Assembly: GCA_015179125.1 (NCBI GenBank)
Contig: WHVA01000303.1
Location: forward strand, 1-64,000
DNA: 64,000 nt
DNA from: Gautieria morchelliformis
Taxonomy: Eukaryota > Basidiomycota > Agaricomycetes > Gomphales > Gomphaceae
Direction of reading: 5' to 3'
Made by a program: the position numbers and the translations under genes. Under the pieces are notes generated by a model. That model was not told where the DNA came from and searched no databases. It saw nothing but the letters and a program-made list of their open reading frames with translations. This document shows, one piece after another, positions 32,867 to 58,262 of the stretch. Positions within the stretch are counted from its first letter, which is position 1. Every line of letters begins with the position of its first letter.

Positions 32867-33238
32867 CTACCGTCAGATCTCACTGATCCAATGTCAGAAG
32901 AAGCTAAGCCCTTCCTCTTCAATCCTATGATACCCTCTTCTGGAGATTCTCCTGTAGTGGGTTCTCACCATTAGTAAAAAGTAGCAAACAAAATTAAAAC
33001 CTGCATTGAACTACATACAGTAAGCTAAGCTTGACATTGTTCCCCCCTCAGCACCCAAAATGCAAAATAAAAAATGCTTGTTTTATTCGGATTTTTTAGT
33101 TCTATGCCCTAGCTATGGTCCACATAGCTTCAGATATGAAATTTCAAGCGAATCGGAGCGATATCAAGCAAGATATCGTTGTTCGAAGTTTGCGCGCTAA
33201 AACGGAAGCAAATCCGACGCGCGCCTTAGATACTGCAA
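32640..33238. repeat. Right arm of the ~600-bp inverted repeat (partner 24,617-25,210)
   Basis: This is the reverse complement of the left arm and ends GCGCGCCTTAGATACTGCAAG at its outer border. Identity is high through the AAAATGCTTGTTTTATTCGG and CAAGCAAGATATCGTTG blocks. The two arms differ by few substitutions, so they were copied or homogenised recently. Confidence 0.85.
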
Positions 33239-33466
33239 GTAATGAGTTCACCTTGACTACCAACTTGCAAACTAGAAAAGCTCTTCAAGTTACCGATTCG
33301 GAGGCTAATTCAGCTCTGGAACATGCAACAAGATTCTATACCGTGTGATAATAAAAGTATCGCTGTACGCCATTTGACCAGTGCCGGCATGAAACGTTAG
33401 AATACACGAAAGATGATTAGGAATTTGCGAACGTCACTCGCTATTACACTCGTTAGATAAAGTATG

Positions 33467-33997
33467 TCAATATTCAAACCTCCAAGTCAAACAATTAACA
33501 CAACATTTTATATATAAGAAGCCCGAGCGCAGAGCCGGTGGAATGATGATGTCACGGTGACCCGATGGACCGTCGCTCTTGTTCCTGGCCGCCTTTATGT
33601 GCAAAAGGAGGTCGCACGCCATGGTCTCTGCACACAACGCATAGAGAGCATCTATACGAACGTCTTCCTTCTTGTTGTTGTTGGTGATGTAGCAGGGAAC
33701 CTTGGAGTCTTTCCTAACGTTCACGTATATGTTGTCGAAGTATGTCAATGGTGCATAGCAATCCCGGGCTACACAGTTGCTAAACTCTTCGAAAGACGCG
33801 GCGTCCCTTTGATACCCTTTTGCTCGTGTGTAGTCTCTGTTCATAAGTCTAAGTGTGCATCTGTCCTCTACGCCTAGGGTTCTGTCATAAGCAGCCGCTG
33901 AAGCGCTGACGGCTGTCTCCTCTAGGCACAGCTTTATAGCTAAAGTCGAGGTAGTTCTTGGAGGTGAGCTCGGCAACAGGAAGGGCTTGTCTAACAA
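33467..33997 (-). CDS. Unknown 176-codon ORF in the virus-like relic
   Basis: This is an intronless open frame just downstream of the RPB2-like C-terminus on the same strand. Its first ~17 codons lie inside a perfect inverted repeat, so the true start may be later. It has mixed composition without low complexity, for example CTLRLMNRDYTRAK, YFDNIYVNVRKDSKVPCY and ALYALCAETMACDLLLH. No family is recognised. Its intactness stands out, since every larger neighbour in the relic is interrupted. Confidence 0.4.
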   Translation of the reverse strand: MLDKPFLLPSSPPRTTSTLAIKLCLEETAVSASAAAYDRTLGVEDRCTLRLMNRDYTRAKGYQRDAASFEEFSNCVARDCYAPLTYFDNIYVNVRKDSKVPCYITNNNKKEDVRIDALYALCAETMACDLLLHIKAARNKSDGPSGHRDIIIPPALRSGFLYIKCCVNCLTWRFEY

Positions 33998-34051
33998 ACG
34001 TCGGCCTTCCTGTTGCCGAGCTCACCTCCAAGAACTACCTCGACTTTAGCT
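33938..34051. repeat. Perfect 47-bp inverted repeat with 20-bp spacer
   Basis: 33,938-33,984 is an exact reverse complement of 34,005-34,051, with spacer GCTTGTCTAACAAACGTCGG. The right arm is the 3' end of the RPB2-like frame. The left arm is an inverted copy that forms the start of the next open frame. Absence of any mismatch in old, decayed surroundings points to a recent inverted duplication, gene conversion or an assembly artefact. Confidence 0.95.
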
Positions 34052-34230
34052 TTGGTGACGGAGTGGTATAGGGCGCTTCCCAGGTTCTCTATGACAGTCT
34101 CCAAAGGAAGCGTGAAGGATGTCTTTGTTGTGGGTTCTTTGCACGAGCACATTGGAGCAAGCAAATGACACACGTCACACACGTCTATCACAGAGATGCC
34201 AGACCGGGCTCTTAACTCGTCTGTAGACCT

Positions 34231-36158
34231 CAAAAATACCGCGATGCGGGGAAAACGGCCATGGCCGTTTAGCCATGGCCGTTCGATTAGTAATGTGATC
34301 ACGTGACCTACGGGCCAAATAGTTACCGAGCACCAACACCCCACATGTACACCTTATGTACCATGAGACTAAAACATTACATCACGTGCGAGTCACAGTA
34401 TACGTCCACAACACGTCCACAACCACCTCGAGCTTGCTGCGTGCTGCAGCAACCCCCACGCGTCCCTACGTGCCCCAGAGCGTGTTAACTTGGGTAAGTC
34501 AATGCCACGACTTCCCACCTTCAAGACATATATAAGACTCGAAGTCTCTCCAGCTCCAGACGCCATGGACCGCAGTAGTTCTATCTTCTCTCCTCCCTCT
34601 ATCGACCCCGAACCACCACCACCCTTGTTGTACAACATCGACGCCTCTCTCATTCCTAAACCACCACTGCCCCACACCATGCCCCTGTTTGTTGATATGC
34701 ACAACTCCAGTCCTCTTATCGAGGAACAGCACAACTCACCTTCGATATGAGTGTGCGTGAGACAGTATCGTGCTTGGTTACTTTCTAGTGGGATCTTGCA
34801 GTCATGGACGCCACAACATGGGTGTCCGAGACTGATGCCATCGGAGACGACAGATCGGTACACTCCCACAAAGTTTCCTTCGTCATCCTTGATGTGCTTT
34901 GTACAGAGGTTGCATGCGTGATTCCAGGCCGGTTGACCCATCCCTGCCATAGCGATGTTACGCGCCGTAATGGCAATATGCTATCGAGCAGCTTGGGTCG
35001 GCGCCTTATGGGGAACCTGTAAGATGGACTCACGGTAATGGTGCCATTCAAGAAGGGAGTAAATGATGAAGGCCTCCCCTACAAGCTCGTAATCGAGCTG
35101 TAGGCTCACGGGCCAATCCTGTGGTAGCGCCGTGGACCATGGAAGCCGCAGGATTTCCTCATTGTATCCGCGAGCGCAGTTGAGCGTGGAGTTCCTGACC
35201 ACAGCGATGGGTGAGCAAGAAAACATATCACTTAGAATGAAACTTACCAGCCCATGTGCATTTGTGTGGCAAATCGTTCGCAAAGGTCAGTCTCCAGAAG
35301 AAATGCGGCGTGACTTGGATGGCATTGGGGAAAGATCTAATATCCGGTGCATAATACACACGGACATTATCCTTGACGTATGAATGGTAGTGGTAGCGAG
35401 TACAGCAGCCTAGGGTAGATGAATTAGCAGGAAGATCGATAGGAGGTCGACAGACACTTACCACGGCAGTATGTCGACGACGTGGTGATGGGAATAGGAC
35501 CGTATGAGCGAGTGAACAACGTGGCTCTATACGTCCTAATCTCGCGAAGTTCGGGTCCTTCGCCTGATTTCCGTCGCTGCGGGTTGTTCGGACACTGCAG
35601 CTGGATGCAGATGCGGACTGGAGGCAGAAAGTCATACATGCCTAGAATAGATGCACTTCATGAGTAAAAAAATTATAAGATGCTCAGAGGATGCAGATTA
35701 CTCACGAACACACACTTGGGCTCCATGCTGAAGAAATAACGGGAGAAGAACACACGGATTGATGATTAGGTGGTGAGCATCGTCCCATGCAATGTGGCGC
35801 AATGCGGTCCAGCAGAGACGTGCTATTCCATCTTCCACATCAAGAGCCAGTTGCAGGAACTCGTGAATGGGAAGGGGCAATCCATCGGGGGCCGTTGTAG
35901 CAGTTGACAGCTGAGTGAATTGTATCTTGGGCTTAAAGTGTCGCAGAAGTGTGATATAAAGTATTATTTTGTCATGGGGAACGTCTAACAGCTCTGGGAT
36001 TACACGACACGCGTTGTAGACGTGTGCTAGAGACATTCGACGATGGACGTTATGTTTAGGAGGGTTACCTAATGTAGACCACAAGGACCCCTAATGGCCA
36101 TGCCGTTTGGCCATGGCTAAACGGCCATGGCCATTTTCCCCGTAGCTGGGTATTCCTC
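34231..36158 (-). mobile_element. TIR element with KDZ-associated CxC5-CxC6 gene, 8-bp target duplication
   Basis: GTAGACCT stands on both sides (34,223-34,230 and 36,159-36,166). The inverted ends share GGGGAAAAnGGCCATGGCC and GTTTAGCCATGGCC, with AATACC nearer the border. An 8-bp duplication suits KDZ/Zisupton-type or hAT-type elements. The cargo gene carries cysteine clusters known from KDZ transposases, but no DDE core is seen, so this is probably a non-autonomous derivative. The insertion splits the RPB2-like frame. Confidence 0.8.
34393..36084 (-). CDS. CxC5/CxC6 cysteine-cluster protein (KDZ-associated)
   Basis: These cysteine clusters accompany KDZ transposases in basidiomycetes and probably bind zinc and DNA. 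The first exon (36,084-35,700) is MSLAHVYNACRVIPELL to NPCVLLPLFLQHGAQVC. The next (35,640-35,440) has CIQLQCPNNPQR and ATLFTRSYGPIP, then after an intron YCRG-CCTRYHYHSYV and VRVYYAPD, the CxC5 pattern. From about 34,950 come HACNLCTKHIKDDEGN, VVSDGISLGHPCCGVHDC and RYCLTHTH, the CxC6 pattern. At least four short introns are needed. After 34,740 the frame loses similarity, so the C-terminal transposase part is absent or cut off. Confidence 0.65.
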
Positions 36159-36270
36159 GTAGACCTTAGCAACCCAGACTCTTCGGCAGCGTATGTGCTC
36201 ATCTCGTCCAGCCGTATAGCGCCTCCTCCAGAGCGTCCTTTCTCTGAGCTAATCTTGTGTGGAGACAAAA

Positions 36271-36642
36271 GACCATGGACACTTTCATAACGACACTACG
36301 TTTTCCCTTAGGCCGTGTTTTGTGCTTGGTCTCGACGACATTTTTGAGTACTTGTCTCAAGAGCTAGAGTTCAGTATTAGCCGCGGTCTTCTCTGGGATC
36401 CCGTTGGCCTGCACGTGCTCAAGAAGACAAACTGTACATGGGTGTACAACGGTGTCCCTATAACAGATTCCCGAATGAACAATTGTCTCAGTCATGTGGC
36501 GCATGTATGCGAAGGCCCTATCTCGTTATACTCGTGGCACGCACATGGAGAGGCTGCACGACGGCCAACAGATCACCTTTCCCACAAAGTGTACATAGCC
36601 CTTGGAAACAACAAGCATGACTGGATGTGTATAGCGCACTAG
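36271..36642 (+). CDS. Unknown ORF in the virus-like relic
   Basis: The frame is open for about 124 codons and starts only a few bases from the upstream edge of the RPB2-like piece on the other strand. It contains VLGLDDIFEYLSQELEF and WDPVGLHVLKKTNCTW. No in-frame ATG occurs near its beginning, so the start is unclear or lost. No introns or domain are recognised. The 3' end is followed within 60 bp by the next small ORF once element A is discounted, a gene spacing typical of compact genomes. Confidence 0.35.
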   Translation, partial: DHGHFHNDTTFSLRPCFVLGLDDIFEYLSQELEFSISRGLLWDPVGLHVLKKTNCTWVYNGVPITDSRMNNCLSHVAHVCEGPISLYSWHAHGEAARRPTDHLSHKVYIALGNNKHDWMCIAH

Positions 36643-36694
36643 TACACACGGCAAGCAAGCTTGCTCAAAACACCTACTCTCTATACCGTACAAT

Positions 36695-38813
36695 CACTGC
36701 GTTCAAGGGGTTGATTTCTAAACGCTAGAATGTCTCTGAAAGACCCTATGTACATACCTGTCAAGGCCGTAGACAGAGCGGCTCTCTAGAACTCCGAATA
36801 GGAGTGAACCAAACTTTACGGAAAATAAAGAACTGACTACTCAAGAGTCAGACAAGCCACATCCTCGGATTCTTGAACAGGGTTCCATTTGAAGCTACAT
36901 GGAACTTTGAAATTCACTAGCTAGTTGGACTATCCAGAGGTCAAGGAGCCCCGCGTGTGCACCTGTCCCAGCCTGTTCGAAAACATACCTAGCTTTGAAT
37001 CATTCTGTATACCAACGGATATAGTATATATTAATTGTTCTGAATACTAACAGATATAATAAATATTTATTAAATATTAATAGCACAGTTGCTTTTCCTG
37101 AAATAAGTTGGCCGATACCTACCGATCCACGCTAGTACAGGAAGAACCTTGGGACCCACCACCATGGATCCTTGCCATTCCGCCCCAAGGGGAGCGATGG
37201 GTATATAAATCGCCCGTGGGCCTCGTTTGTCGACCAGAAGCGATCTTAATGAAGAAGAAGCCGCTGCCAGCGCCAGTGTGAATACGGTGGGTGAAAGGGC
37301 CGGTAATGTGGATGAGCAGTAGCTGAAGCGACATGGGAGGGAGAATGCGGGCAGGATGCATGGTGGAAGCAAACATGGGGGAATAGGACCTGGTGCAGCC
37401 CCGGAGGGTGTTGGTCAAACAAATGTTCCCGCACAACCAGTACTAGATCCGAGACTATCTGGAGGCCCTGAAAGCAGGCAAGTCCGCCCATCAGTAACTA
37501 CAGCGATGGTGTAGCAGAGGGCAGAAACTGACCTTGAACTATCCGCGTGATCATGAGTGTGGCGTATGAATGGCAGAAGCTCCCTGCGAGTGAACAACCT
37601 GCAGCAACTATTGCAGATATCAGATAAATCGGGCGTTGTCCAACACGAGCTGAGATAGGCGACCAGATAATTGGCATGATGCCTAGGAATATGATCGGAA
37701 CCGAACTTTGACATAAAGAAGGTGTGAAGTGCGGGGATGATCATATGGACTATAACTAAAACTCACGTAGTAAAAGCAGCGGTGTTCAGATTAACCCCAA
37801 ATTCCCTGGAGAGGTCCATGAACGCAGGGATAGTGGCTGCATTGGAAGCGTCAGTGGCGACTTATGAATAGACAGGTGCTGAAAATACCGGCGGACATGG
37901 TGCCTTGCATGGTGTGCACGGCTACTATCCCAAGCAGAATGTTCTTGCGCCATCTACCAATAGTCTCTATAACACTCACTTGTACGTCTAGATTCACTCA
38001 CATTGGCCAATTAAGAGGATCCGCTGGCGAGCGCGATGGAATAGGCTCCAGGGTAAAACTGTCAGGCTGCAGAGAAGAGTTTTTGCTGGCTTCATGCGTT
38101 AAAATGAGAGAAAGAGTCAATCTGGTGAGATACATCAGGGGAAGTAATGCAACGACGGTAAGAAGCATGTGCAAAGATATTGTGCCGTGGGAACGACCAA
38201 CTCACGACTGCGCTGCAGGGTTTAGATCTGATGAGATTCAAGCTCTGGCATGCGATTTTCATGTGTAGAATGAGGACATGAAGAGTCCCTAGAACCCAAT
38301 AGAGGTGTCGTAGACCTCGGCAGCTCATAGCTCATCGTGGCGGAAGGCAAGACACGAAGACGCGTCGTATGTTTGGGTGTGTTTGCCTAGGTCGCGTACT
38401 TTACAACCTGTAGATAAAATGCTAGCTATATGCGAAGCTGCCACGTCGCGACTCTCATACGAAAGGCTTAGGGAAGAAACATCATTAAGTACCCAAGTGA
38501 AATAATCAAGACTTCTCTAAGTCAAAACCACCTGCTCATGGCTACCCCAGGCCGTAACAGGTCGGGAATTTCGATACCCTAGCGAGGTTGACTATTCAGA
38601 CCCGAGATTCGTCCACATTGGCCTACTTATAGGTCTTCCCGGGAATCCATATTCCGGGACTGTTCGTAAAGTTGAAAAGGGGTGTATGTATCCCCTACTC
38701 GGGGTATTCTAAGGTCGCAATAGACTGTCTATTTGTCGTTGCCTGAATAGGTGTGCCGCACAGGGACATTCGGCAACATTCCATTGTCAGATATTACCGC
38801 TCTAAACGCAGTG
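36695..38813. mobile_element. Element A: non-autonomous Plavaka/CACTA carrying an MFS fragment
   Basis: It starts CACTGCGTTCA and ends TAAACGCAGTG, with AAT duplicated at 36,692-36,694 and 38,814-38,816. The left ~800 bp and right ~430 bp match the ends of element B (48,023-48,810 and 55,190-55,627) in the same orientation, so A uses B's type of transposase. The middle is unrelated to B and encodes transporter exons. Short CACTG ends with a 3-bp duplication are diagnostic of the CACTA superfamily. Confidence 0.88.
37450..38330 (-). pseudogene. Captured MFS transporter fragment inside element A
   Basis: On the minus strand one sees RWRKNILLGIVAVHTMQG, then ATIPAFMDLSREFGVN, an intron with GTGAGT, and LGIMPIIWSPISARVGQRP followed by LISAIVAAGCSLAGSFCH and LMITRIVQG. 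This is the first half of a drug-H+-antiporter-type MFS protein: the loop after helix 2 with R-x-G-x-RP and helices 3-4. Introns are retained, so the capture was from genomic DNA. Later transmembrane helices are missing, so no transport function is expected. Confidence 0.72.
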
Positions 38814-39204
38814 AATGAGTAACTATAGCCACGTGCACATTGGACATAGACTCTACCCCTCGTGTCGATACAAACCTCATATCCAAAGCATGTATCTCTT
38901 TAGCCGAAGAATATCCACACACGAGCTACAAGGCATCCTTCAAAGAGCTAGCAAGAGGGCGAATCACTGTGGGTAGTCAACCCAATGAATCCTATTGGGT
39001 GGACCCACTGAGGATTCAGTATATAAACCATTATAGCTAGTGTAAATACCAATAGAGAGTATATGTTGGCTGATATTATATCAAGTCCTATAATAATTAT
39101 TATCATCTCATAATTTAAGCGCTGAAAAACTAACTTTTCCAAAAGTGGCAGCTAATTAGTCGGAACATGTGACCTGGCAAGTGTTCCGATGCAATCTCTC
39201 CCTC

Positions 39205-40273
39205 ATGCCCGCCGACGCGTCCAAGAAACGTCTGCTGCTGGCGACCCTCGTTCCCTACGTTCTCAACGTCCAATCGACTCTCAACTCGCTCCCTGAGGAG
39301 CAAGACTCACGGTTACGGTCAATTGGTGCAGCACACACACTGTCTCTCGGGGATCGCCCCTTCAAGCCGCAACCAGAGATAGGGGGACATCGGATCACAG
39401 AGGACTACTTGGAGGGGCTGAGTGAGGCAGAGTGTGTCTGGAGGTTTAGGTGAGTTCCTTGGCCCTTGATGTTTGTGGACTTACCAGCTGATGCACATCA
39501 GGTTTTCATTGCAGGAGCTCTCTCATCTCAGCAACTTGCTAGAGCTCCCAGGACCGTTGATCACCCGATCTGGGTACCGCGCAACAGCTCTCGAGTCCCT
39601 GGCACTTCTCTGTGCATGGCTCCGGAGTCCTGAGGATCTCTGGTCGCTGGCAACCAAGTACGCACGGCCGCAGCTGGCCATCTCTCAGATCGTGAATGAA
39701 ACAGCTAGTTTCATCAATTCACGGTGGGGCCACCTGTTGGATTGGGATCACGAGGGCCTGCTCAGTCCGGCCAACTTACGCATGTATGCCGATGCCCTCC
39801 ATGCATTCGGCGCTCCCACCCACTCTGTTTTCGGAATTATCGATTGTACGATAAGACAAACCTGCCGCCCTGGAACTAACCAAGATTTGGTTTACACAGG
39901 CTATAAAAAATGCCATGGTATGAAGTTTCAAGGGATCGTTGTGCCGAATGGGCTGATCACGCACCTCGCTGGCCCTTTCCAGGCCCCCCAGAACGACAGT
40001 GGGGTTCTTAAGGAGAGTGGACTACTCGACAAGATCAAGAGCCTGGCGATCCAGCCAGGGTCCACCCCCGACGATCCCCCAGAGCACCGTTTCTTTCAGG
40101 TGTATGGGGACTTGGCCTATTCGGTCAGCCCCTACCTCCTGAGTCCATTCAGTGGCGGGGACACCTTGACACGGGAAGAGCATGCGTGGAATACAGCAAT
40201 GGGGGGTGTACATATCTCAGTCGAACACGGTTTTGGACTCATCTTGCAAGATTGGCCCTATCTCCACTGCTAG
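39205..40273 (+). CDS. PIF/Harbinger DDE transposase
   Basis: It cuts and pastes the element, acting with the Myb-like partner. The ATG at 39,205 (MPADASKKRLLL) is followed by one ~45-nt intron (GTGAGT at about 39,450 to CAG near 39,499). The second exon has the DDE_Tnp_4-type core: IIDCTIRQTCRPG (first Asp), QVYGDLAYSVSPYLLSPF (second Asp) and MGGVHISVEHGFG (Glu). The total is about 340 residues, somewhat short for the family. The conserved region after the Glu is brief and ends ILQDWPYLHC, so a further exon or a small C-terminal loss is possible. Confidence 0.82.
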
Positions 40274-40429
40274 TGGAAGCACAAGATCCTCGGCAATCCA
40301 TGCGGCTTGCTATATCGAGTGGCAGTCCTACTCACCAATGCGCGGGCCTGTCTTGTGCCCAATCAAACGTCCAAACGATACGGATGTCCCCCGCCACCGA
40401 TCGAGGCGTATTTCCATGGAGGTGACTTC

Positions 40430-40765
40430 TGATGGATGGACAAGGCGCGTTCTGGCGCATAGAGAAGGCGCGTTCTGACGCATAGAGAAGGGGGTTCTGA
40501 TGCGTGGAGAAGGCGCGTTCTGACACGTCAGAATGCTTGATGTTCTTGAATTGTGTGGAACAAGATGAAAAACAGTTAAAAGCAATTTATTATGTGCCAA
40601 AAAAAATTTTTTTTAAAAACAATTTACTCTGTGCCAAAAAAAAAGAATTTATTCTGTGCCAAAAAAAACAATTAAAAAGAATTTATTCTGTGCCAAAAAA
40701 ACAATTAAAATGAATTTATTCTGTGCCAAAAAAAACAAGCAATTCATTCTGTGCCCAAAAAACAA
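40430..40765. repeat. Two short tandem arrays in the Harbinger
   Basis: At 40,435-40,530 units of GCGCGTTCTGACGCATAGAG recur three or four times. At 40,575-40,760 six or so ~30-bp units pair AATTTATTCTGTGCC with a run of 6-9 A. They lie between the convergent genes, where they might serve as transcription end signals for both. Confidence 0.75.
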
Positions 40766-40775
40766 ACCCCTGAGT

Positions 40776-41794
40776 TTACTTAAGTAACCCCTCCCTGATG
40801 ATATCCAGGAGCGCAGTGGCTGTCCTTTCCTGGATGGCCAGAGCCCTGTCCTGCCGTTCCAGAAGGCTTGCATGGAAAGTTTCCATCGCCTTCTCCCTCT
40901 GCTCCTCCCGCTCCTCACTTTTCTCAAGTATCCTGGCCACCCTTGCCGTTTCACGCGCTCCATGGACGCGACTCACGCTCGTGAGTCGTGTCCTCTTGTT
41001 GCTCTCGGTGCTGGAAACACCAGGCTCATTGTCCTCATCCACCTGATTTTCCTTGCCGCTATCATCAGCTCGGGATGATCGCGTGCGCTTCGCCTTCGCA
41101 TGACCCTTCATCATATTCATGCGCATCGATTCCCCGGATGTACGTGACACGTTCTGTGCCTGCATGATGCGTGTAATTAGTGTGTAACATAGAAACAGGA
41201 AAAAAAAAAAAAGTTACCTCCTTAGTGTGCTCTTTCAGTTCCTCGAGCGTATCCCTGGCCTGGATCTTCAAGTGCTGAACAGCGTCCAGTTTGCCACACA
41301 GTCCTGCAAAGGTGACTGGGTCTTGCTCCAGCACTCTCCCCAGTGGTGACCGCGCGGAATGTTTTTTCCCCCCCTATACAGATCAGCAGCATCGACAGTG
41401 AGACTTGGTAAACACGTACCTCTACCCATGTAAGCATAGAGGACACCTTGTTCTTCAAGGTGTCCACCTCCCGGTTCTGGCAGAACCCCTTCTCTTGCAC
41501 CAGTGTGGCAATTTCTCTCCACTTCTCACCAATCTTCATGCGCGGCGCCATGTACGGGTTGACAGCCAACACGGTGGCTAAGAGGTGGTCGAGATCACGC
41601 ATGGTGAACTCTTCACGCGTCTTGCGTGCTTTTGGCACCAGGGGCAGTTCATTGCTGGAGGGAGGGGTGGAGGGGTGAGCCGAGGTGGGGGTGCTAGATG
41701 GCCGTGATTGGTTGGCGGTATCCTTGAGAAGCACGGGATCTATCACAGCATCAGCAAGGAGACCATAGAATGACGAGGGAGGGATAGGGTCCAT
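40776..41794 (-). CDS. Myb/SANT-like partner protein of the Harbinger
   Basis: The start MDPIPPSSFYGLLADAV at 41,794 leads, after a Ser/Pro/Thr-rich stretch, to FTMRDLDHLLATVLAVNP, GEKWREIATLVQEKGFC and REVDTLKNKVSSMLTW, a trihelix of Myb/SANT type known as the DNA-binding helper of PIF/Harbinger transposases. An intron of about 60 nt with a pyrimidine tract separates this from VAKLDAVQHLKIQARDTLEELKE-like helix (positions near 41,300) and a last exon (41,165-40,776) with a basic patch and a Glu/Arg-rich coiled coil ending LLDIIREGLLK. Likely nuclear. Confidence 0.72.
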
Positions 41795-42239
41795 TGCAAT
41801 GAGCGCGTGTGGTGGGCACAAGTGGACACGTTATACTTAGTAAATTCACACAATAAATTCATAATTTGCATCATCGCCGGAATCGGCCGAAGCTAATAAT
41901 TCATAATAATTCTTACCAACATATACTCTCTATTAGAACCCGTTGAAAATTCAATGAATTGGTTTCAGTGGAAAAAGTTTCATTTCAATGAGTTGGTTTC
42001 AGGGGTTGACTCATGTGTATTCAGGGATCCTACAACAGACGACCAATGGATTGAACGAGGCATTTCAATTCAACGACCACTGGGTTCCCATGAAATAGTC
42101 ACTTACAACCCCATGGTTCTATCACCACATTTCAGAGATGCAGCAACTGAATGCCCCATTATTTCAAGTCATAAATCAATATATACAAGGGAAAATACAG
42201 ATGAAACATAAGGTGAAAATCACTGAAATACCGCTTTTC

Positions 42240-43500
42240 AATCCATGAAACCTGGGAACGGTGTGCATCTGTGCTTGGCGATGCAAGACATGAGAGCAAT
42301 CCAAGACACAAGAAAAAGTAGATGACCTGCATAACAGCTGGTACCAAAAGGAAAAACAGAATCAGTCGCGGGTAGCAACCCCCACCATCGGCCGCACGCA
42401 CCTGACTCATGCTCAATGATCGCTACCTTGGGGGATTCCGCCAGCTCCCACGCCGCATCCAATTCTCCGGCACAACGTGTCCGAGTCCACAATCAGGATA
42501 AGCTCACCCACACGTATGGCGCACCCGTTCGCTGCCCACGGCATCCACCGCCGCCCGATCTCCTCAAACGTCTCCTCGACCGCCAGGTGCAGTGTGCGCT
42601 CCTCGAGGTCGAGCCTCACATCCGCAGCCGTCAGCGCACTGCTCGACGTCGTCGTCGTGAGCGTGGTCGCGCCTGAGCGTGCCGAGTTCGAGCTCGTGTC
42701 CACACCCGCACCCGCCGCGGCGATAGGCTTTCACAGAAAGTACACAGGGGATGGGTCGAGCGAACGCCCAACTCACCATCTATGCGCCATTCTCGCGTGG
42801 ATGACTGAGTGGGTGGCGAAAGATTGGAGGGAAGCCGTGACGGTGGGTCGAGTGATTTCGAGGTAAGATCGCCGAAACCACTTGACGGGGGCGGCGTCAG
42901 CGTCCCAGGCACTCTATCCCCAACTACTGTTGAAGGTGACATTGAGTAGTGGGTGGTATCCATGCAAACATTTGGGGGTATCGAACTGAACCTTGTACTC
43001 GCCATCGCCTTGCCGCAATTATCACAAACGGTGGGACGGCCTTTAAGACTTTTCACCACACGACCCTCCCGCATACCACGGCGGCAAAACACATTGATCA
43101 TACCCTTTTTTGCACCCCTTATCCCATTCCTATATATTGCGCCGTTCTTTCCCTCCCTTACCAGCTCACATCCACAATCCAACACCGCTCTCATACCATC
43201 GTTTCCGAGACGACCCATCCCATACACGGTCTCGCTAGCGGAATTTTCACTCTCGGTTTCTTCTGAATCAGGCGCAGGAGTCGGAGGTCAAGGCCGGAGC
43301 CTCGGTTTAGGATGCGGCTGTTCTCGTCGGAAATGGGGCTTGATCGATGAATGAGCAGGGTTCTGTTTAACGGCCAACGGCGCTGGGGCGGAGCCTGACG
43401 AAAAAGTCGTGGTGAACGAAGGCTGGGACGTGAAGAAGGAACCAGACGCACGTGCACGGACGCTGAACAGCGACTTCAGCCTATGTCGACACTGTACTGG
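42240..43500 (-). pseudogene. Captured GT2 glycosyltransferase fragment and Ser/Pro-rich piece in element D
   Basis: The segment 42,700-42,400 has WMPWAANGCAIRVGELILI followed by VDSDT, the Asp-Ser-Asp sugar-nucleotide motif of GT2 (Cps1-like) polysaccharide synthases. After a frame change comes AAWELAESPKVAIIEHESG. The order matches this family, but the N-terminal membrane part and the catalytic QxxRW end are missing. The upstream part (43,230-42,800) has MINVFCRRGMREGR and CDNCGKAMAST and may come from a second gene. Introns or frameshifts break the pieces. GC content is higher than in the element's AT-rich ends. Confidence 0.62.
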
Positions 43501-45478: not shown

Positions 45479-47913
45479 AGTGGAACCATTGAAAACATAT
45501 AGGCCGACCCACTGGATTTCAATTTTCATGGCTTACAGCACCCAATGAAAAACCCACTGAAAAATTTTCAGTAAATATGTTCACTGAAATTATCACTGGA
45601 GTATTTTAGGTGGTTTAGGCATTGAAAATTTCAATGATATTTTAATGACATTTCAGTGTAACATGCACTGGTAATTTACATGCCCAACCTCATGAAATTT
45701 CAGTGAACAAGGCATGGGAACTCCAGGATATAGTCACAGAAAAAAAAGGAAGTAACACCAATGAAAAGTCCGCAAAAACTTGACTGAAAATCCGTGCGGT
45801 CGGCCGGGAAAATAATGGATGAGGAACGCTGGATGTCGTTGAGTCGGTAGGTGAAATTCCGTGACTGGGCATTGAATATAGGGGAGAGAGGATGTGATAA
45901 TGGCACTGAAAACACCATGGTAAGGAATGAAAATCAACTGATAACTCACAATACTAACCAGCTCTGTCCTACACCTAGCCTCGAGCCCATTCGACACCAC
46001 ATCCCTAGCAACATCTCCGTCAAGTGGCTCACTCTTGATGTTTGCACAAGTTCAAATGAGGATGTACGTAGCGGGGTGCTCCAGTCCAATCGCACACGAC
46101 GCAGGCAGAGTGCGAACCACAATGAAGTCAAGCTGCCTATAGGACACATTCTGGGACGCGCCTTCTATGGCGGGCATTTTTCTCTATGAGATGGATGGGA
46201 GAATCTGACGCAGCAATTCATTATCGTAGGTTCGCTGTGGTAACAAGAACATGATTATATAATCACGTGACATTTCGTTTACCTTCTTACTGCCACGACC
46301 ACCCATGGATGGTACACGCTGGCAACCTGTCTCTGGTTTCCAGATCCACACCAACCTCACCCATTGTGGTGGGTATAAGTTGCTTGCTATGTTCTCATGC
46401 TGTTTTCTCCGCCGTGCCAACGTTGCTTTTATTTTTTGTCCTTGTGTGTATGCGGTGGGCGGTTTCTGTGGCGCGTTTCTGCTCTGTCTCGCACTTACGC
46501 TTGATTGCCAGCACGTGCGGTGCGGGATGTTGGGACTGCGGACTGACGAAGTGACGATGACATGACGCAGCCATTCGGGTTGGTGCTGCATAAGGTGTCG
46601 AGCGTGTATGAGTGGTGTCCATTTTTGTCCACTGTCGGTGAGTCGTCGTGTTTTTGTTTTTTTTTCCCGATGCTGTAAACTTACTATATGCGTCTTGTGA
46701 TGTACTCGTTTGGCTTCGAGGCGGCGTGGAAGCGCTACGGCGTCGAGGCGGGGGACATCTTCACAACGGTGCGTGGGGTGGATGGGATGGGCTGGTTGGA
46801 CTAATGCGCATCTTTCTCTCTCGTTAGTGTCTGCAAGCCGCAACCGCAGTCGTGAAGCATTTGATCGGCATGCATGCGCCACTGGAGATCCTGCGATATG
46901 CGCTCGACTGCTTCTTCGTGATGGGTGAGTTCTGCGCGTGTTCCTGCTCAAGGTGCGTTGGCTGCCATTTTTTTTTCTGCGGGTGTTCTGAATGATGTTG
47001 TTGTGGATGCTGCACCCCAAGTTCGCGGCCTTGTTGGACATGGAGCAGCACGCACGCATTGTGGCACTCGTCATGCGCTTCATCTAGGTGCTCTTGTCAC
47101 CCGCGGCATTGGTCAACGAGACGCACACCCCGAAGCTGTATGCAAAGTTCCTGCACTGGTAGCTGCAGTATTTCTTGGTGGCCATTCCCCAACAACAGTC
47201 CACCACCGCACCCACACCAGGTCTGCGTCAGCCACCCTGCGCCATGACGCCATGCGCCCCGGACACGTCTCTCACGGAGCGCTATCCGCACGCCACGCTC
47301 GCGGCCGCCTTCCCCGACCCACCGGACGCTGGAATACAGTGGTATCTCCGTAGAAATTCAATGACTTGGCAGGTATTTTACATCTTATATGCCTGTTATT
47401 ACTAGAATATCATCCAGAAATAGACTGCTATTTCACTATATTTCATTGGATCTTCCACTGGCTTTGGGTGCCCAAGTCACAGAAAATCTGCCTTCTAGCT
47501 CAGGCTCTAACAAATGAAAAACAGCAAAGAAATCACGGGAATGTGGGGAGCCACCCATGGGTATTTCCACTCTTGTTACGCTGAGTTATTGGTGTATTTG
47601 AGCCGACATTCCGTGATTACCCCATGAAACCTCGGTGATAACTCATTATAGTGTCCATGATATAAACACTGAATTTGTATGATATTACTACTTAAATCCA
47701 ATGATTTAAACATGGAAATACCATAATAACTCACTGAAATTACATGATATGCACACTGAAATAAACTCACGGGTATGAACACTTTTCCACTGAAAACAAT
47801 TCAGTGGCTTTATCTCAGAAACTCAGTGGATTATGCACAGAACGCAGTGATTTAGCCACTGAAATTTCAATGGTTGAAACTAAAGGTTTTCAGTGGTTCC
47901 GCTATCCACAGTG
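45479..47913. mobile_element. Element C: Pack-type relative of D, 4-bp target duplication
   Basis: The ends are CACTGTGGATAG and CTATCCACAGTG, with AGAG on both sides (45,475-45,478 and 47,914-47,917). Subterminal CACTGAAA-like repeats match D. The interior (46,260-47,350) is GC-richer and holds fragments of a fungal transcription factor. No transposase is seen. It splits the DNA polymerase relic between the motif C piece and the KKxY piece, in frame. Confidence 0.85.
46560..47190 (+). pseudogene. Captured fungal transcription-factor fragment inside element C
   Basis: Exon-like pieces read TQPFGLVLHKVSSVYEW, YSFGFEAAWKRYGVEAGD, CLQAATAVVKHLIG and LRYALDCFFVM, then FAALLDMEQHARIVALVM and HTPKLYAKFLHW. 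These fit the C-terminal part of a Zn2Cys6-type factor (fungal-specific trans domain tail) by pattern; the match is from memory of family style and is moderate. Donor GTGCGT and acceptor GTTAG borders of small introns are preserved. The zinc cluster and the start are missing and a stop interrupts near 47,085. Confidence 0.45.
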
Positions 47914-48508
47914 AGAGCTAAGGACGAAGAGGCCCTGGGATACCCGCTCTCTGGTAGTGTAGCCGTTTAGCTTTTGTCTGCCTGGACGAACAAAGCAGGA
48001 GTCCGTGCCTCCCCCCAAGACTCACTGCGTTCAAGGGGTCAATTTTTAAATGCTAGAATGTCTCTGAATGGGTCTATGTACATACCTGTCAAGGCCATAG
48101 ACAGAGCGGCTGTCTAGAACTCCGAATAGGAGCGAACCGAACTTTACGGAAAATAAGGAACTGACTGCTCAAGAGTCAGACAGGCCGCATCCTCGGATTC
48201 TTGAACAGGGTTCCATTTGAGGCTACATGGAACTTTGGAAACAACTGGCTAGTTGAGCTATCCAGAGGTCAAGGAGCCCCGCGTGGGGATCTGTCCCAGC
48301 CTGTTCGAAAACATACCTAGCTTCAAATCGTTCTATATACCAACGGATATAGGATATATTAAATTTTCTGAATAATAACAGATATAGTATATATTAAATA
48401 TTAATATTACAGCACCTTTTCCTGAAATAGCAGCCATTTGGCCGATACCTACCGATCCGCACTAGTACAGAAAGAAACACCTAGCTTGGAACCTACCACG
48501 ATGGATCC

Positions 48509-50753
48509 TTGGCCATTCCCCCCCGAGAGGAGCAATGGGTATATACAATGCCTGTGGGCCTCGTTCAATGTCGACCAGAAGCATTAAATGAAAAGGAAGC
48601 CGCTGCCAGCGCAAATATGGTGGGTGAAAGCACCGGTAATGCGGATGAGCCGCAGCCGAAGCAACATCGTGAGGGAGAGAATGCAGGCAGGATGCGTGGA
48701 GGAAGAAATCGTGCAGTGATCGGATGTGGTGCCACCCCTGGTCAAATGAAGGTTCGTGCACGACAAGATCACAGACTATCTGGAGGCCCTGAAAGCATGT
48801 AAGTCCGGCCCTTCATTTCACCATTGCAAGTGACTCACGTATTCTTGCAGCCCAGCTCGACCGCCTCTTGAACACAGTCAGACCAATATTCCCAGACCCT
48901 AGATTGACTAGGGCTGACGAGCGTCATGGGGTAACTAGCGTCAGTGCGGGCAGGTAAACTGTCAATACACCTTGGAGAGACTTGCTGGAAGAGACTTACC
49001 ACTTCCAGCCGATATTCCACTCCATTTCACACACGCTCGGTACCTGCGCAGCCCACTTCGAGTCGCTCCATCTCATGTTCATCAAGTCCTGACCTTGATC
49101 TGGCGTCAGTCACGAGTCAGGCACGCCAAGGTCGTGTACACCTACCTTCTGAGCCTTGCAAGGACTCGGGCCCTACCCCTTCTAGCAATGATTCCCAGAT
49201 TGAGCAGGGTGTAGGTCCTGATGGTATCCTCCTTGACAAAATATCACAACTTATCAATGTCGGCTTCAAAACCGGAATAAGGGAACTTGGCGAAAACTTA
49301 CGCAAGGAGCTTGGGGTTGACGGCAAGGCACCAGGCAACCCCGATGATCCTCGCTCAGCATCCGTGTCCTCTGTTCGCAATGAACTGCTGTCCCGTCGTG
49401 GCCGCACAAGGATACTGGTTCGACCTATGAAGTGCAAGAGGACGAGCAGCACTGATGACGGGGGAGATGATGGTAACTCCGACGAAGAACTTAACCAAGA
49501 TGTTCATAGAGTTTTCATCCCAATGCATGTGGCGACAAGTACTAGAGCGAAACTGACTGAGCAGGAGCTTACTATTAGACACGATCTTCAGGTACGTGGC
49601 AATGATTTTCTGTGCAGTATTATTTCAACTCGCCTCCAATTGCGGCAGAATGTCCTGCGCAGTCAGATGCGTAAATGTCTTGGCGTGAAGGTTACTGACC
49701 GTTTGCCGGGACCGCTTGCTGAGGGGGATGAACCTCGTGTCATTGACGCTGAGACCGGAGAGACTGCACTCGATGTGGCTTTTGCCGAGAAGGTCAATCA
49801 TGCGACGAATTCCCTTTTCTGAGGCGTGTAGTAGAGCTTGTTCACGCAAACAGCAAAGTAAGTCAGAGTCATTTCATTAAAGCGTAGTACACTCATCTCA
49901 TACGAGCTAGGATGAGCTGACTTTTCCAGTGAGCTTATTGGATGCGGACATGCAAGTATCACGCTCTGTCCTACTTGAGCTTGCCAAGACATCATTTGTG
50001 GGACTGCAGTCAACCTACAAGACTCAGGTTGATGACAAAGCTGCGAGCCGGCGATTGAAGAATGAACAGCGAAACCGTTGGCGCGAGCGACGGGGACAAG
50101 TTATTCTTTGGATGACACACTTGAAATTGATCCACTCTCACTTTTAGAAGAAAGACTGGCGTCTCCAGGCAGTTAACACTTTTACTGATAAGTACGGGGT
50201 GGATCCGACGCCGCTCCTGGTGCAAGATTACATGTCTGATGAGGCTTCTGGTCCGGACATCAACTCGGATGGGGAGATTCCCACAGAGGACAAGGATATT
50301 TGGAAACGCCGCATTATGAATTACGGCGGACTCGAGGGGAAGCTTGAAGACCACCGGGTGCTTGAGATAGTCAGGCCCAAATGGAGAGACGAGGCAGTAG
50401 GTATATTCTGTTACAACTGTCTCTCCATTGATCAATTTTGGGCATAGACCTCAGAAATTTACCATGAATTATCCAAGATCCACATGACTAGCCTTTCAGC
50501 CAAGAGTCGTCAGCAAATCCTGTTCCATCGTGTACAGACAAATCGAAGTATGGACAAACCGACAATGATGGCACCTTATAATTTCATGATCGACGAGCAT
50601 TGGTTCAAGACGAAGCGAGCCTGGAAGTACAAAAGAGAGACGGAAGACTGGGGTCACTACGGTGATGACCACACGCCGCCTGGATTCTCCATGCCCGATG
50701 GATTGAGGCTGTTGCAGATGGACGAGGAGAATGACGCACAAGGTTTGCCCTGA
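48509..50753 (+). CDS. Unknown accessory protein of the Plavaka element
   Basis: Several exons are needed. The start is uncertain (48,509-48,600); its first ~300 bp lie in the left end shared with element A. Recognisable landmarks are ISQLINVGFKTGIRELGENL, LRSQMRKCLGVKVTDRLPG, QDYMSDEASGPD, WKRRIMNYGG, VLEIVRPKWRDEA and RVQTNRSMDKP, ending DAQGLP at 50,753. The MSDE-x and RPxWR phrases recall uncharacterised basidiomycete proteins found near transposons. The central part has a basic patch (RPMKCKRTSS) beside an acidic run, fitting DNA or protein binding. No catalytic motif is seen. Confidence 0.5.
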
Positions 50754-50964
50754 GGCAGTATCAGGCGTCAACCCTTCGATATCTTGCCCGTTCACAGAGG
50801 TGTCCGATTCCTGGTCTCTTGTTCACTTTGCTGTCACATGCTGTTCACAACCTGTATCACCACATAAATTTCCATGTATAACCATGGTAGTTAACAAATA
50901 ACATCTTGTACGCGGAAGCAGTGCCGGTTTAAGATACAGAACATTGCTTCATTGATTGATTAGC

Positions 50965-53900
50965 TTAACGTGGCATCATAGACAATAATCTCACTTTCTC
51001 AGGGCTGATGGTCAGCCATAACTTGGGCTTGTGGTCATGGAAGGTTAGCCGCGCCAGGTGACACCGGATCCATGTCATCGGAATGAGTGTTGGTGGCACG
51101 GTTGGACCTCGCGGCATGTACCTGTCGTATTCAGACACGACGACATCGTGTTCTGGGCTGAAGAGACAACAATCCAGGAGATTCTGTGAACAGCATCACA
51201 GGACAAAAATACTTACAATAATAGCCAATTATTAATAGTCACTGGTGACGCCGAAGTAGTTTTGAGCCAGCGCATCTCAGCAAACATTGTGGATCCATAT
51301 CCTCGCTGTGTATGTTCAAAGACATCCAACACCTCACCATGGTAACTCTTGCCAAATATGTCGACCTTGACGAGTGCTGAGCAGGGAGACTGGGATAGAG
51401 CTTGGCGGATAGGGACAATGCGGCGGCCGCCCCGGAGAATATGAGCATAAAATGTAGCACCTTCTACCAGGATGTTTGAGCGACGAGATACACCGACCTC
51501 AGTTGGATACCACACACGTTCGCCAGGTATTTCGTTGTAGTAGGTGTGCAACTGGGCACGCATGGTGCTACTGACGACTGCGTGCTTGATGATAGGGCCG
51601 CGTGTGATAATATCACGCCTTAACGCTTAATGAATAGTTGTTCATTGTCGTAAAGGCTTAATGAATTCTGGTACTCACAATCATCAACCATCTCTTGGTG
51701 AATGATGCCCTGGTCATGATCTGTGCTTGTTGCAACCTCGACCGTTCCCCGCGCCTTCTTCTAACATGTGAGATGCGAGAAGACGCAAGAGGGAATTTTG
51801 GATTCCGCGTAGAGATGTTACATAGCGTAGCTAGGTGCCATGTAGTCAGTATGAAGACTGGAGAAGAAGCCAGGGTGCTCACGAGATCATGAACTTGGAG
51901 ATCCCGCTCCCATTCGCGAACCATGGTTTTCTCGAGCTGACCGTTTCCCCAGTTGTTCAACTTGAAATTTTTGAGAATTTTGTTAAGGCGCTCTCCGAGG
52001 AAGCACCAGAAGCCGTACACTGGGCCGTAATCTCGAATCTGAGCAGCAGTGTGCGTGGTGAAGTGGTGATTTGGCATCATAGCCCCCACACCATACAGCT
52101 AGCATGCAGTGTCAATGGATAATATCTAGAGCTAAGTGACTATTGACTCACTTCCTTGAATCCCGCAAGATAATCCAGCAGTAAGGAATGCGCATGGTCG
52201 ATGTCATCGTTCGTCAACGCCTCGGACGTGAATATCTTGATTGATGTTGCTAATCTGAGGAACAAGATATCTTCCCCCTGGTGCATTCTCTGCTGCGGCT
52301 TTTTGGGTGGCGGTGGTGCTTCTTCCACAGGGCGCTTGCCTTTCTTTTTCTTTTGTGTTTCGGCGTGCGATGGGTGTAATGGATCAGTTGTGATTGCCTT
52401 TAACTCTGCCTGTTGTGCTCGATACTTATCACCATGCTTCTTTTCCCATTCCGCCAGATTTTTGTGCCAGCTGTTAGTTTTCTTAGTGAGTTCATGTAGC
52501 TGTGGTTTCAAAAACTTCTCCCAGATTAACGGAATCTTTGTTACCATTGAGATGAGCGACTGTGAATGGTATGATCATGTGAACCTTACTGTTAATACCC
52601 CAAAGATAGTGGCAAGTGCCTTGTAATTATCTGCTGATAGACTGCCACCTGCTGGCTCACCGACCTGGGGATTTAGGCGTCCTATGAATGGTGGAAACTC
52701 GAACTACCAAGCATAGATATCATGAACAGCACCGTTTCAATTGACAAATGGGACTCACTTCAGATTTGTGAATTTCCTCAAGTTCACGAGGTGTTTTATC
52801 GGTTGAGGCCTGCAGCGCCGAGTTCCCTTTGATCCATATTCCATACCATTGTGTTTTGACGAGTCCTGAGTTTTGAATCAATATATATATATGTGAATGA
52901 AGAGATACATACCCATGAGCAAATTGTGCATGGTATCAATGAGTGTCATTCGAACTGGATCGAAATATGGCAGGTGTGCGCACTCGAACCATCGCACACC
53001 CTTGTCCTTGAAGAAGGCTTCTCGTTCTTCTCCTTTGAGTTCTCTCCACTCCGCAGCCCTTTGCCGATGTTGCTCCCCATCCCGCAAAGGACATTCTAAA
53101 ATAAGTATTATTTGGCTCTAGGTTGTCGCACCACATACCTCCTCGTAAGGCTTCATCGGAGAAGAGATGTGCTTGATTCACATGGCATTTTGTGCAGGGT
53201 GCCTCCGCGTGATTTTTGTCGGCAAACCCAGCAAGTTTGACCATTGCCGGGTGGTCAGCTACAATTCCAACGAGAACTACACGCACCAGACGACCTAGAT
53301 ATCATTCCGTTAAGAAACCAAATATAACTAATGAGTAATTACATACCGTCAGGGCACAAAGGAGTCCAGACAGTGATTCCCTCGTAGAAAAGTCGTATGA
53401 GGTCATCGACTACCATCGACATCGGGTGCTGAAGCTGTTCCCCCGATGGCTCTTTTGGTCCTGGAGTCATGAACGATACCAAGAGCGTGTCGGCCTGGTA
53501 TCTAATGGATATAATCAGTACAAAGGCTGAAATGATAACATAAATAGGAACATAACTTAAACCTGGACCTAGGTTTGCAACACACCAGGACGCTATGCCA
53601 GACGAATGCCAGGCTCCTGTTTCTGCCTGCATAATACCGAACCTAGACAGTTAAATCAACCAAATGAAAAAAAAAAGAGATCATTAAATATACCAGTCGA
53701 GCCCCAGCGTCACACCTAGCCGTAGTTCACCATCGTCATCATGGCTGAAAAACGGCTTACCGTCTGGACCGAGGATCGTATTCCATATCACGCCGTCCAT
53801 GATGTCACGATACACACCATGTTCTCGAGGTAATGTCTTCCAAACTTCACACTCCTTTTCCATACCCTCACGTGCAACGAAGTCAGCAATAAGTGACGAT

Positions 53901-55012
53901 AAAGGACGAAATGGCGCTGATATGACAGGAACGGGTTTCTTTGGCTTTGGCTTTGGCTTGTTCTTCCGAATTTGGCTTGAACGGTCAAGCAGTGCTTGTG
54001 AGGCGGGGCTTGGACTAACTCGGGGGTAAAGGCCCTGCTCGCAAATCGAGCATTGTGCATTGCATGCTTCATCTGGATGTGCAACTGCTGGTGTAAAGGT
54101 ACGGCATGTAGGACAGACTGCCATCGTAATGAATCGCTCCTGTATGCTCAGTCGAGCAAGGGTGGTATTCAGAGTAGTTGGCATGTTATCATCAGAAGGG
54201 ATGAGGAATAGTGCAATGAAAATTTTGCGCATGCAGAAGAGAATCAGTGAGCATGCTTGGAATGAGACATGGTGGTGTGTGTGTAGCAGCAGCACAAACA
54301 ATAAAATGAGCCATATGTACCATTTCTGATGGGCCCAGTCATATGTTTCCGCTGCTGGAACATGAGGTGGCGGCAGTGGAAACCGATGAACAATGTCGGG
54401 CATATCTATTATTGGGGCCGAACCAGCATGTGGCATGGTTCTCGGACCAACATCATCATCTTGGCCGAGCTCGTCCTGTTCTATGTCATCGAGGTCAAAG
54501 TTGTCCGTGTCACCATCATGCAAGGTAAAAGTCCAGTGTTCATGAGGTAATGGTTGTGGTACCAGTGGCTCAGGGACAACGTCAGTCGTTGGGTTCTCAA
54601 CCAGATCTATATATGGATCTGGATCTGAATCTTGATCGACGTCAGCTAAGGAGAACTCATCCATAGGGTAATCGTAGTGGTTTTATTCACGCAGCTCCGG
54701 GCTGACATCCAGTCGTGGAAATTGAAATGTGTTAGGTACTGGAATATCCATGTCAAGGAAGGGGTCCGGAATGGCCTGACGCGAGGAGGATGCCATGCTG
54801 AAGCCTCGAGCTCGACCTGATATCGCAGACTGTATCTGTGTTCCTCGGCCTCTCCGTGTGATACCAGTGCTCCGAGGTACTGCACGGCCTCTTCCCCTGG
54901 TGATGTAGCCCCAAGAGGAATTTGAAGAACCGAGATCCGAAGAGCCTCGATAGCCGCGTTTATGTGGGTTCCCGCGATTGCCAGAGGGGGGTGCCTGTTG
55001 TTGAGAGGCCAT
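50965..55012 (-). CDS. Plavaka/Tnp2-type transposase, multi-exon
   Basis: It mobilises CACTG-ended elements. Start MASQQQAPPSGNRGN at 55,012. The next exons have PTCRTFTPAVAHPDEACNAQ (zinc-like Cys), FRPLSSLIADFVAREGME, ELRLGVTLGLDW (53,700), PGPKEPSGEQLQHPMSMVVD (53,440), LVGIVADHPAMVKLAGF with CTKCH (53,230), RWFECAHLPYFDPVRMTLID with MHNLLMG (52,930), and MMPNHHFTTHTAAQIRDYGP with LNKILKNFKLNNWGNG (52,030). The last exon runs through YMPRGPTVPPTLIPM to the stop at 50,965. The order is that of Agaricomycete Plavaka transposases, and motifs are present from end to end. About nine introns; no disabling change was noticed. Confidence 0.8.
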
Positions 55013-56076
55013 ATTTGCAGGCTAGCACACTATCCAGTCAAGTAAGTTATTTATCCATGCTGTTCTATTGACCCCAACGAGAATTACATTACCGATCAAG
55101 GGAGATCAAAGATGAGGCACACAGTTATCTAGTGTCCTCTGGTGAATGTAGAGATCCACGTAAGTGATCAACTGGATAGCAGCTGCTGTGTGGTTGTCGT
55201 GGTTGGAGGGTAAGATGCGAAGCTGCTTCGTCTCACTAGCTTGACTCTACATCTCATACGATAAGCTTAAGTCAGAAACGCATATATAATTGCCCAACTA
55301 GTGAGAGATTAATCAAGACTAGTAGCTTCTCTGAGTCAAAACCACTGCTCGTGGCTATCCCAGGCCGTAACTGATCGGGAATCCCGATACCCTCGCGAGG
55401 TTGACTATTCAGATGCGAGGTTAGACCTGCATGGGCACACTTACGGGTCTGCCCAGGAATCCAGATTCCGGGGCTGTTCGTACAGTTGAAAAGGGCCGTA
55501 TATATTATCTACTCAGAGTATTCTAAGGTTGCAATATACAGTCTATCTGTTGTTGCCCGAATAGGTGTACTGCCCATGGACATTTGGCAATGTTCCATTT
55601 TCAAATATTACCGCTCTAAATGCAGTGACTCGTAGCCCTAGGGCAGAGAATACACATTCGGCAACCGTTATCAACCATCGACCTATCCCCGTTATGGAGG
55701 ATGCACATCTTGGACTATACAAGCGAGAGCCCGAGAACCCAAGAGTACCATAAAGGCTGTTGGTCAGAATCTTCAAGGCAAGCGAGTATGTAGGGTTTGT
55801 CTTCTTTACTCTAAGACGCGTGCCTATACGCCGGGACCTCTTTCTTAGACACGTTAGGAGGGTTTCTGTCTGTGTTTCCTGCCTATAGCGTTACCGACAC
55901 ACGATTAGAAAGCGACTATAGACCCCCCACAAACGACAGTATAAAGAACTAGCCAATAGACCCATGCTTCGCACCGGGTTATTTAGGGTTAACATTGCAC
56001 ATGGGTAGTTAATAGAATCAAAGAATTATTTGGTGAAATGCAACTACATACATTAAATACAAATGGAAATACATAT

Positions 56077-58247: not shown

Positions 58248-58262
58248 GCCTGTTTTGGCTGA

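What the first reader, a model, noticed from the sequence alone, without database searches (positions are those of the whole stretch)
33430..55948. A shredded dsDNA-virus-like (or linear-plasmid) genome fragment hidden under nested transposons
Seen: after discounting five insertions with matching target duplications (GTAGACCT, AAT, GAAT, AGAG, ACT), about 2.8 kb of compact, intronless sequence remains. It carries an unknown ORF, an RPB2-like C-terminus, two small ORFs and a family B DNA polymerase, with frames continuous across the removed sites. Known: a family B polymerase plus its own multi-subunit RNA polymerase is typical of NCLDV giant viruses and of cytoplasmic killer-type linear plasmids. 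Inference: an endogenised member of such a group in a mushroom-forming fungus. I know of no described equivalent.
Basis: partly seen in the sequence, partly recalled or inferred. Interest (0 to 1): 0.95.

Follow-up and report, generated by a model that had tools for sequence, protein, structure and literature searches.

The report
Wrecked DNA-virus-like element in mushroom genome
A fungal chromosome holds the broken remains of what looks like an unknown double-stranded DNA virus or plasmid, cut up by later jumping genes; if confirmed, it would give a way to look for such elements in mushroom-forming fungi.

Summary
The anatomy holds up. Five insertions with target duplications and similar inverted ends split about 2.75 kb of older sequence. 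Three pieces are one family B DNA polymerase: they match consecutive stretches, 258-323, 324-357 and 360-448, of P0001, an annotated Gautieria morchelliformis protein. The "unknown ORF" matches P0001's N-terminal part (41% over 51 aa), so the two genes recur together. The polymerase forms a supported clade with two environmental proteins; its deeper place, nuclear or viral, is unresolved. It is not of the killer-plasmid type. The RPB2 claim is plausible, unproven: one piece scores best in the window, but shuffles and decoys come close or higher. The polymerase has lost a catalytic aspartate and both genes look truncated. No capsid, ATPase or primase matched in the ORFs scanned, which are part of those present. 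Best reading: a dead remnant of an undescribed dsDNA virus or plasmid of mushrooms. The window's own genome could not be searched.

The parts
55628..55948 (-). PolB piece 1 (motif B); its upstream side ends at the presumed Helitron border near 55948
   Evidence: Pfam PF00136 8.2e-10 for ORF 55543-55890; 91% over 66 aa to P0001 258-323; profile hit 55627-55818, 88.7
47914..48022 (-). PolB piece 2 (motif C; reads GGGTDS where P0001-P0003 have GGDTDS, so a catalytic Asp is lost)
   Evidence: 65% over 34 aa to P0001 324-357; profile 37.7; translations
44591..45468 (-). PolB piece 3, open frame down to the stop at 44895, plus about 300 nt without an assigned gene
   Evidence: 69% over 90 aa to P0001 360-448; profile 58.2
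38814..38964 (.). short piece of the old sequence, no assigned gene
   Evidence: lies between two inserts with duplications
36167..36694 (-). piece with a possible RPB2 stretch at 36200-36354, in more than one frame, and a plus-strand open frame 36253-36642 without a family match
   Evidence: best RPB2-profile score of the window, 27.6, but near shuffles and decoys; no Pfam match for the plus frame
33994..34230 (-). possible RPB2 C-terminus (CDVC..CSC cysteines, by eye)
   Evidence: no RPB2 family match; profile hit 34105-34287 needs 57 nt of the insert
33467..33970 (-). ORF-X, unknown family shared with the N-terminal part of P0001
   Evidence: 41% over 51 aa, E 5e-12 for that one comparison; profile of P0001 1-255 scores 54.1 here, next best in the window 24.4, shuffle maximum 25.0
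34231..36158 (.). insert, 8-bp duplication GTAGACCT, inverted ends (hAT-like by duplication length, recalled; no transposase identified)
36695..38813 (.). insert, AAT duplication, CACTG..CAGTG ends; shares sequence with the 48023-55627 insert
38965..44590 (.). insert, GAAT duplication, CACTGTGG ends, DDE_Tnp_4 transposase at 39470-40273
45469..47913 (.). insert, AGAG duplication, ends like those of the GAAT insert
48023..55627 (-). insert, ACT duplication, CACTA-like by its ends (recalled), tnp2 transposase match below cut-off (E 0.09)
55949..59211 (-). presumed Helitron with Pif1 helicase (56077-58098); far end not found
   Evidence: Pfam PIF1 6e-75; 3' border inferred by eye, hairpin no better than shuffles (z -1.04)

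Best explanation
The pieces are the degraded remnant of a foreign double-stranded DNA element (virus or plasmid) that became part of the nuclear genome of a mushroom-forming fungus, probably near Gautieria. In life it would have copied its DNA with its own family B polymerase of the kind that is not protein-primed and, if the RPB2 reading holds, transcribed its genes with its own multi-subunit RNA polymerase (both inferred). After integration it lost parts of both genes and a catalytic residue, and took five DNA transposons and probably a Helitron. It is dead here. A related copy with PolB and ORF-X together is annotated in Gautieria morchelliformis.
For: Inserts and duplications. PolB family. 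The Gautieria protein carries both ORF-X and PolB. Clade of P0001, P0002 and P0003 at 99/98, in the best tree apart from pol alpha and from pol delta with L017. P0001's PolB part gets 115 and 110 bits with P0002 and P0003, against 43.0 for P0001's best solved structure, 7uy7, and 42.3 for pol alpha. Frames of 190, 184 and 87 codons still open (chance per frame 0.0003, 0.0004 and 0.02, not corrected for the many frames).
Against: No capsid, packaging ATPase or primase matched in the ORFs scanned (75 of 96 ORFs of 95 aa or more outside 33400-59200; selected ORFs inside). RPB2 is near decoys and shuffles. AU tests do not reject the clade grouping with pol alpha (p 0.446), with pol delta and L017 (0.385) or with L017 (0.24), and the backbone of the tree is weak (56/86). 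P0002 and P0003 have no known host and their contigs could not be fetched.
Confidence: 0.68

Rival explanations
1. A decayed copy of the fungus's own nuclear polymerase genes (pol alpha and an RNA polymerase second-largest subunit).
For: Solved structures nearest to P0001 are 7uy7 ('DNA polymerase', recalled as a ciliate pol alpha, E 2.4e-10) and pol alpha (3.6e-10); holding P0001-P0003 with pol alpha costs only 1.5 log units, p 0.446.
Against: P0001 is far nearer to P0002 and P0003; P0001 with pol alpha but without P0002 and P0003 costs 14.7 log units, though p is 0.088, not under 0.05; P0003's best solved matches are 774-aa polymerases (107 bits, recalled as archaeal), with 7uy7 at 59.4 and pol alpha at 49-52. 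A fungal pol alpha copy should be much closer to the known ones (inference).
Confidence: 0.12
2. A remnant of a true giant virus (NCLDV), as found in basal fungi.
For: PolB plus RPB2 is a common pair there (recalled); a 1.5-Mb asfarvirus-like region is known in Rhizophagus (PMC10640383, abstract and introduction seen). AU does not reject a group with L017 (0.24).
Against: L017, taken for an NCLDV by the look of its genes (not tested), scores 259 bits with pol delta, while delta is not among the 60 matches listed for P0003; L017 gets 23 bits with P0001's PolB, though 54.0 and 46.7 with P0002 and P0003; no close relative in 5 IMG/VR scans; no other hallmark gene matched.
Confidence: 0.2
3. Gene pieces carried in by transposons (Helitron or CACTA capture) and not an integrated element.
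For: Dense transposons, with a Pif1-bearing element next to PolB.
Against: The pieces lie outside the five insert borders and are interrupted by them; PolB and ORF-X also sit together in Gautieria.
Confidence: 0.07

Closest known systems
Gautieria morchelliformis JB92DRAFT_3119488 (P0001, hypothetical protein, 451 aa)
   Same: PolB 91% over 66 aa, 65% over 34 aa, 69% over 90 aa; ORF-X 41% over 51 aa
   Different: PolB frame not broken by inserts in the predicted protein; ORF-X before PolB in one gene model, whereas here PolB comes before ORF-X on the same strand
Environmental PolBs P0002 (495 aa) and P0003 (654 aa)
   Same: Same PolB clade, 99/98, GGDTDSCFV motif
   Different: 40% and 34% identity to P0001; host, genome and neighbours unknown
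Yeast cytoplasmic linear virus-like elements (pGKL)
   Same: Fungal elements with their own DNA polymerase and putative RNA polymerase subunits (PMC6831550, passages seen)
   Different: Their DNA polymerase gene also codes for a terminal protein; here PolB matches PF00136, with PF03175 below cut-off
Endogenous Nucleocytoviricota region in Rhizophagus irregularis (1.5 Mb)
   Same: dsDNA viral genes in a fungal chromosome (PMC10640383, abstract and introduction seen)
   Different: Basal fungus, asfarvirus-like and very large; no such relation shown here

Membership tests
Yeast killer-type linear plasmids (VLEs) | Protein-primed family B polymerase (PF03175 type, recalled) with terminal protein | tested here: not met
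   P0001, P0002 and P0003 match PF00136 at 7.3e-17, 4.7e-34 and 4.8e-36; PF03175 only at 0.27, 0.0021 and 0.016, below its cut-off
Yeast killer-type linear plasmids (VLEs) | Own RNA polymerase subunits | tested here: inconclusive
   RPB2-like stretch near decoys and shuffles
Nucleocytoviricota | PolB grouping with NCLDV polymerases | tested here: inconclusive
   Not grouped with L017 in the best tree, but AU p 0.24; a single row, named an NCLDV by eye
Nucleocytoviricota | Major capsid protein, packaging ATPase, primase-helicase | tested here: inconclusive
   No such Pfam match among the ORFs scanned (a part of the window's ORFs, frames with breaks not covered); so short a fragment could lack them
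Nucleocytoviricota | Multi-subunit RNA polymerase genes | tested here: inconclusive
Mirusviricota | HK97-type capsid with PolB and RNA polymerase (recalled) | not tested
   No mirusvirus reference was at hand
Host nuclear B-family polymerases | Groups with pol alpha, delta, epsilon or zeta | tested here: inconclusive
   Best tree separates it from alpha and delta, with a weak backbone; AU does not reject alpha (0.446) or delta with L017 (0.385); epsilon and zeta not tested
Family B DNA polymerase | Motif B, motif C and following palm/thumb stretch, in order | tested here: met
   one catalytic Asp replaced in the window

The most novel reading that the evidence does not exclude
P0001, the window's element, P0002 and P0003 belong to an undescribed lineage of dsDNA viruses or plasmids, at home in mushroom-forming fungi, with their own replicative PolB, a companion gene family (ORF-X) for which no other relative was found, and probably their own RNA polymerase.
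Probability: 0.43. Interest if true: 0.85.

Novelty: new variant of a known kind. Interest (0 to 1): 0.6.

Why it matters
A 2023 paper states that no dsDNA virus of fungi had been identified; it names polymerase genes in basal fungi, an asfarvirus-like region in Rhizophagus, and nucleocytovirus genomes from crustal fluids whose hosts may be Ascomycota (PMC10640383, abstract and introduction seen). A PolB-bearing element in Agaricomycete chromosomes, with relatives in environmental data, would extend that to mushrooms and give two probes (PolB and ORF-X) with which the living element could be sought.

Tried and rejected
Adenovirus fibre head as the identity of ORF-X: one weak PDB hit (E 0.06), not among the 60 matches listed for P0001; dropped. 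AlphaFold models of P0003 and P0001: mean pLDDT 36.8 and 31.2, useless, so no fold search was made. IMG/VR scans: 6 of 8 found no relative; one search gave 27 loci of 21-30% identity (L011 and L012 look like phages and L017 like an NCLDV by eye; none was tested); one search fetched RPB2 references. ORF-X found nothing among 68 protein candidates, nor did P0001's first 208 residues in phage records. The RPB2 test looked strong at first (two best hits near each other and in order), and was weakened by decoy profiles reaching 35.1 and 27.5, by stricter penalties, and by scoring the pieces without the insert. For the tree, 8 of 31 candidate loci were left out: L021, L025 and L027 as copies of other rows, L011 as split, and L008, L015, L026 and L028 for weak or no match to P0001's PolB.

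Full report
Anatomy. The window is transposon-rich DNA with fungal-type kinase matches, a Pif1 helicase of a presumed Helitron and a DDE transposase. Between 33.4 and 55.9 kb, five inserts each sit between copies of a short duplication and have similar inverted ends: 34231-36158 (GTAGACCT, 22 of 30 end bases alike), 36695-38813 (AAT, 19 of 30), 38965-44590 (GAAT, 24 of 30), 45469-47913 (AGAG, 27 of 30) and 48023-55627 (ACT, 19 of 30). The two with CACTG ends share sequence (85.5% over 697 nt, 83.6% over 304 nt). The six stretches left over add up to about 2.75 kb. Names such as hAT and CACTA rest on duplication length and end bases (recalled).

DNA polymerase. Minus-strand ORFs 55543-55890 and 44895-45518 match DNA_pol_B (8.2e-10, and 0.02, which is below the cut-off). 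A protein search with the first piece found 1 hit among 17 candidates: P0001, an annotated hypothetical protein of Gautieria morchelliformis, E 7.5e-20. The three pieces fall on consecutive stretches of P0001: 258-323 (91%), 324-357 (65%) and 360-448 (69%). This shows, with the pieces kept apart, that two inserts interrupt one polymerase gene. In the middle piece the motif reads GGGTDS where P0001, P0002 and P0003 have GGDTDS, so one catalytic aspartate is gone. A PolB profile (P0003 and P0002) scores these three places at 88.7, 58.2 and 37.7; the next best in the window is 32.5, and one shuffle of both strands reaches 33.0. Matches begin at residue 386 of the 654-aa P0003, so the N-terminal part is missing or lies beyond the Helitron.

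ORF-X. The ORF at 33467-34021 has no family match and no hit among 68 protein candidates, but residues 100-150 match P0001 126-176 at 41%, E 5e-12 for that one comparison. A profile of P0001 1-255 scores 54.1 here; next best in the window 24.4, shuffle maximum 25.0. PolB and ORF-X thus occur together in two different copies, which argues that they belong to one element. In P0001 ORF-X comes before PolB; in the window PolB comes before ORF-X on the same strand.

RNA polymerase subunit. The RPB2 claim was tested on pieces. Neither 36164-36295 nor 33994-34230 matches RPB2 in Pfam, NCBIfam or the PDB at E up to 10. A profile of 12 RPB2 C-termini (yeast, L032-L042), with frameshifts allowed and loose penalties, ranks 36153-36354 and 34105-34287 first and second of both strands (27.8 and 24.6; 12 shuffled strands reach 23.8); a longer profile puts the same two first (28.7 and 26.8). 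Against this: 60 further shuffled strands reach 26.1; with stricter penalties the first place scores 21.2 and 3 of 12 shuffled strands score more; of 8 reversed or column-permuted decoy profiles run on the real window, one reaches 27.5 and one 35.1, the latter on satellite repeats; and without the insert's bases the second hit does not stand (best of that piece 20.2, elsewhere). The motifs (GRSGGGAIRLDEM, CDVC..CSC) look right by eye. I hold RPB2 at about 0.6. If it is RPB2, only its last part is present, in more than one frame.

Relationship. A search with P0001's PolB part gave 4 proteins of 906 candidates: P0001 itself, P0002 (1.3e-27), P0003 (4.1e-26) and P0004 (3.9e-11). In a tree of 32 polymerase cores P0001, P0002 and P0003 form a clade (99/98); two pol alpha-type rows are a separate clade (100/99), and pol delta groups with L017 (96/88), which I take for an NCLDV by its genes; the backbone is weak (56/86). 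The deeper place is open: AU p 0.446 with pol alpha, 0.385 with delta and L017, 0.24 with L017; P0001 with pol alpha but without P0002 and P0003, 0.088. P0003's best solved match gets 107 bits (8s84, recalled as archaeal), 7uy7 59.4, pol alpha 49-52. The PF03175 type of killer plasmids is not met. P0004 groups with 591-596-aa PolBs of IMG/VR contigs L010, L012 and L016, of which L012 looks like a phage by eye. Prokaryotic plasmid and phage records match P0003 only at 21-28% identity among the rows listed.

Other hallmark genes. Pfam scans of 75 of the 96 ORFs of 95 aa or more outside 33400-59200 gave kinases, hAT dimerisation, and weak glyoxal oxidase and mediator matches, no viral hallmark; selected ORFs inside the region gave none either. 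ORFs with frame breaks and many ORFs inside the inserts were not covered. The window's genome could not be searched, so nothing is said about other loci.

Literature. Ten searches of open-licence PMC papers, judged from titles and starts of abstracts, listed no description of such an element in Basidiomycota. [quoted passage not shown] PMC6831550 (passages seen) describes yeast linear elements whose polymerase genes also code for a terminal protein, with putative RNA polymerase subunits.

Verdict. Real, and more than chance: a dead, truncated remnant of a PolB-bearing element with a relative in Gautieria. A foreign origin is the best reading but not proven; virus or plasmid, and whether it had its own RNA polymerase, are open. 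In checking I lowered the main confidence from 0.70 to 0.68 and the novel case from 0.45 to 0.43, since the nuclear rival is less excluded and the RPB2 controls are weaker than first written.

Noticed in passing
33938-33984 and 34005-34051: Perfect 47-bp inverted repeat with a 20-nt spacer between the RPB2-like stretch and ORF-X (DNA fold z -18.5). Perfect arms in a decayed region suggest a recent fold-back copy; origin unexplained.
   Followed up: partly
36253-36642: 129-aa plus-strand open frame inside the remnant, no Pfam match.
   Followed up: partly
24616-25234 and 32620-33238: 619-nt inverted repeat, 97% complementary, next to GC-rich arrays.
   Followed up: no
1954-2253 with 27688-27987, and 2724-3007 with 28457-28740: Near-identical direct copies (99% and 98%) 25.7 kb apart, perhaps a recent transposon pair.
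   Followed up: no
7591-8367 and 5614-5865: Satellite arrays of 17- and 21-nt units; the 5.6-kb array attracts decoy profile hits.
   Followed up: no
L032 3001-3435: A record titled as an Acholeplasmatales MAG encodes an RPB2 stretch 62% identical to the yeast query: probably a eukaryotic contig binned with a bacterium.
   Followed up: no
33467-34021: ORF-X has a weak PDB hit to an adenovirus fibre head (E 0.06), not listed for P0001.
   Followed up: partly
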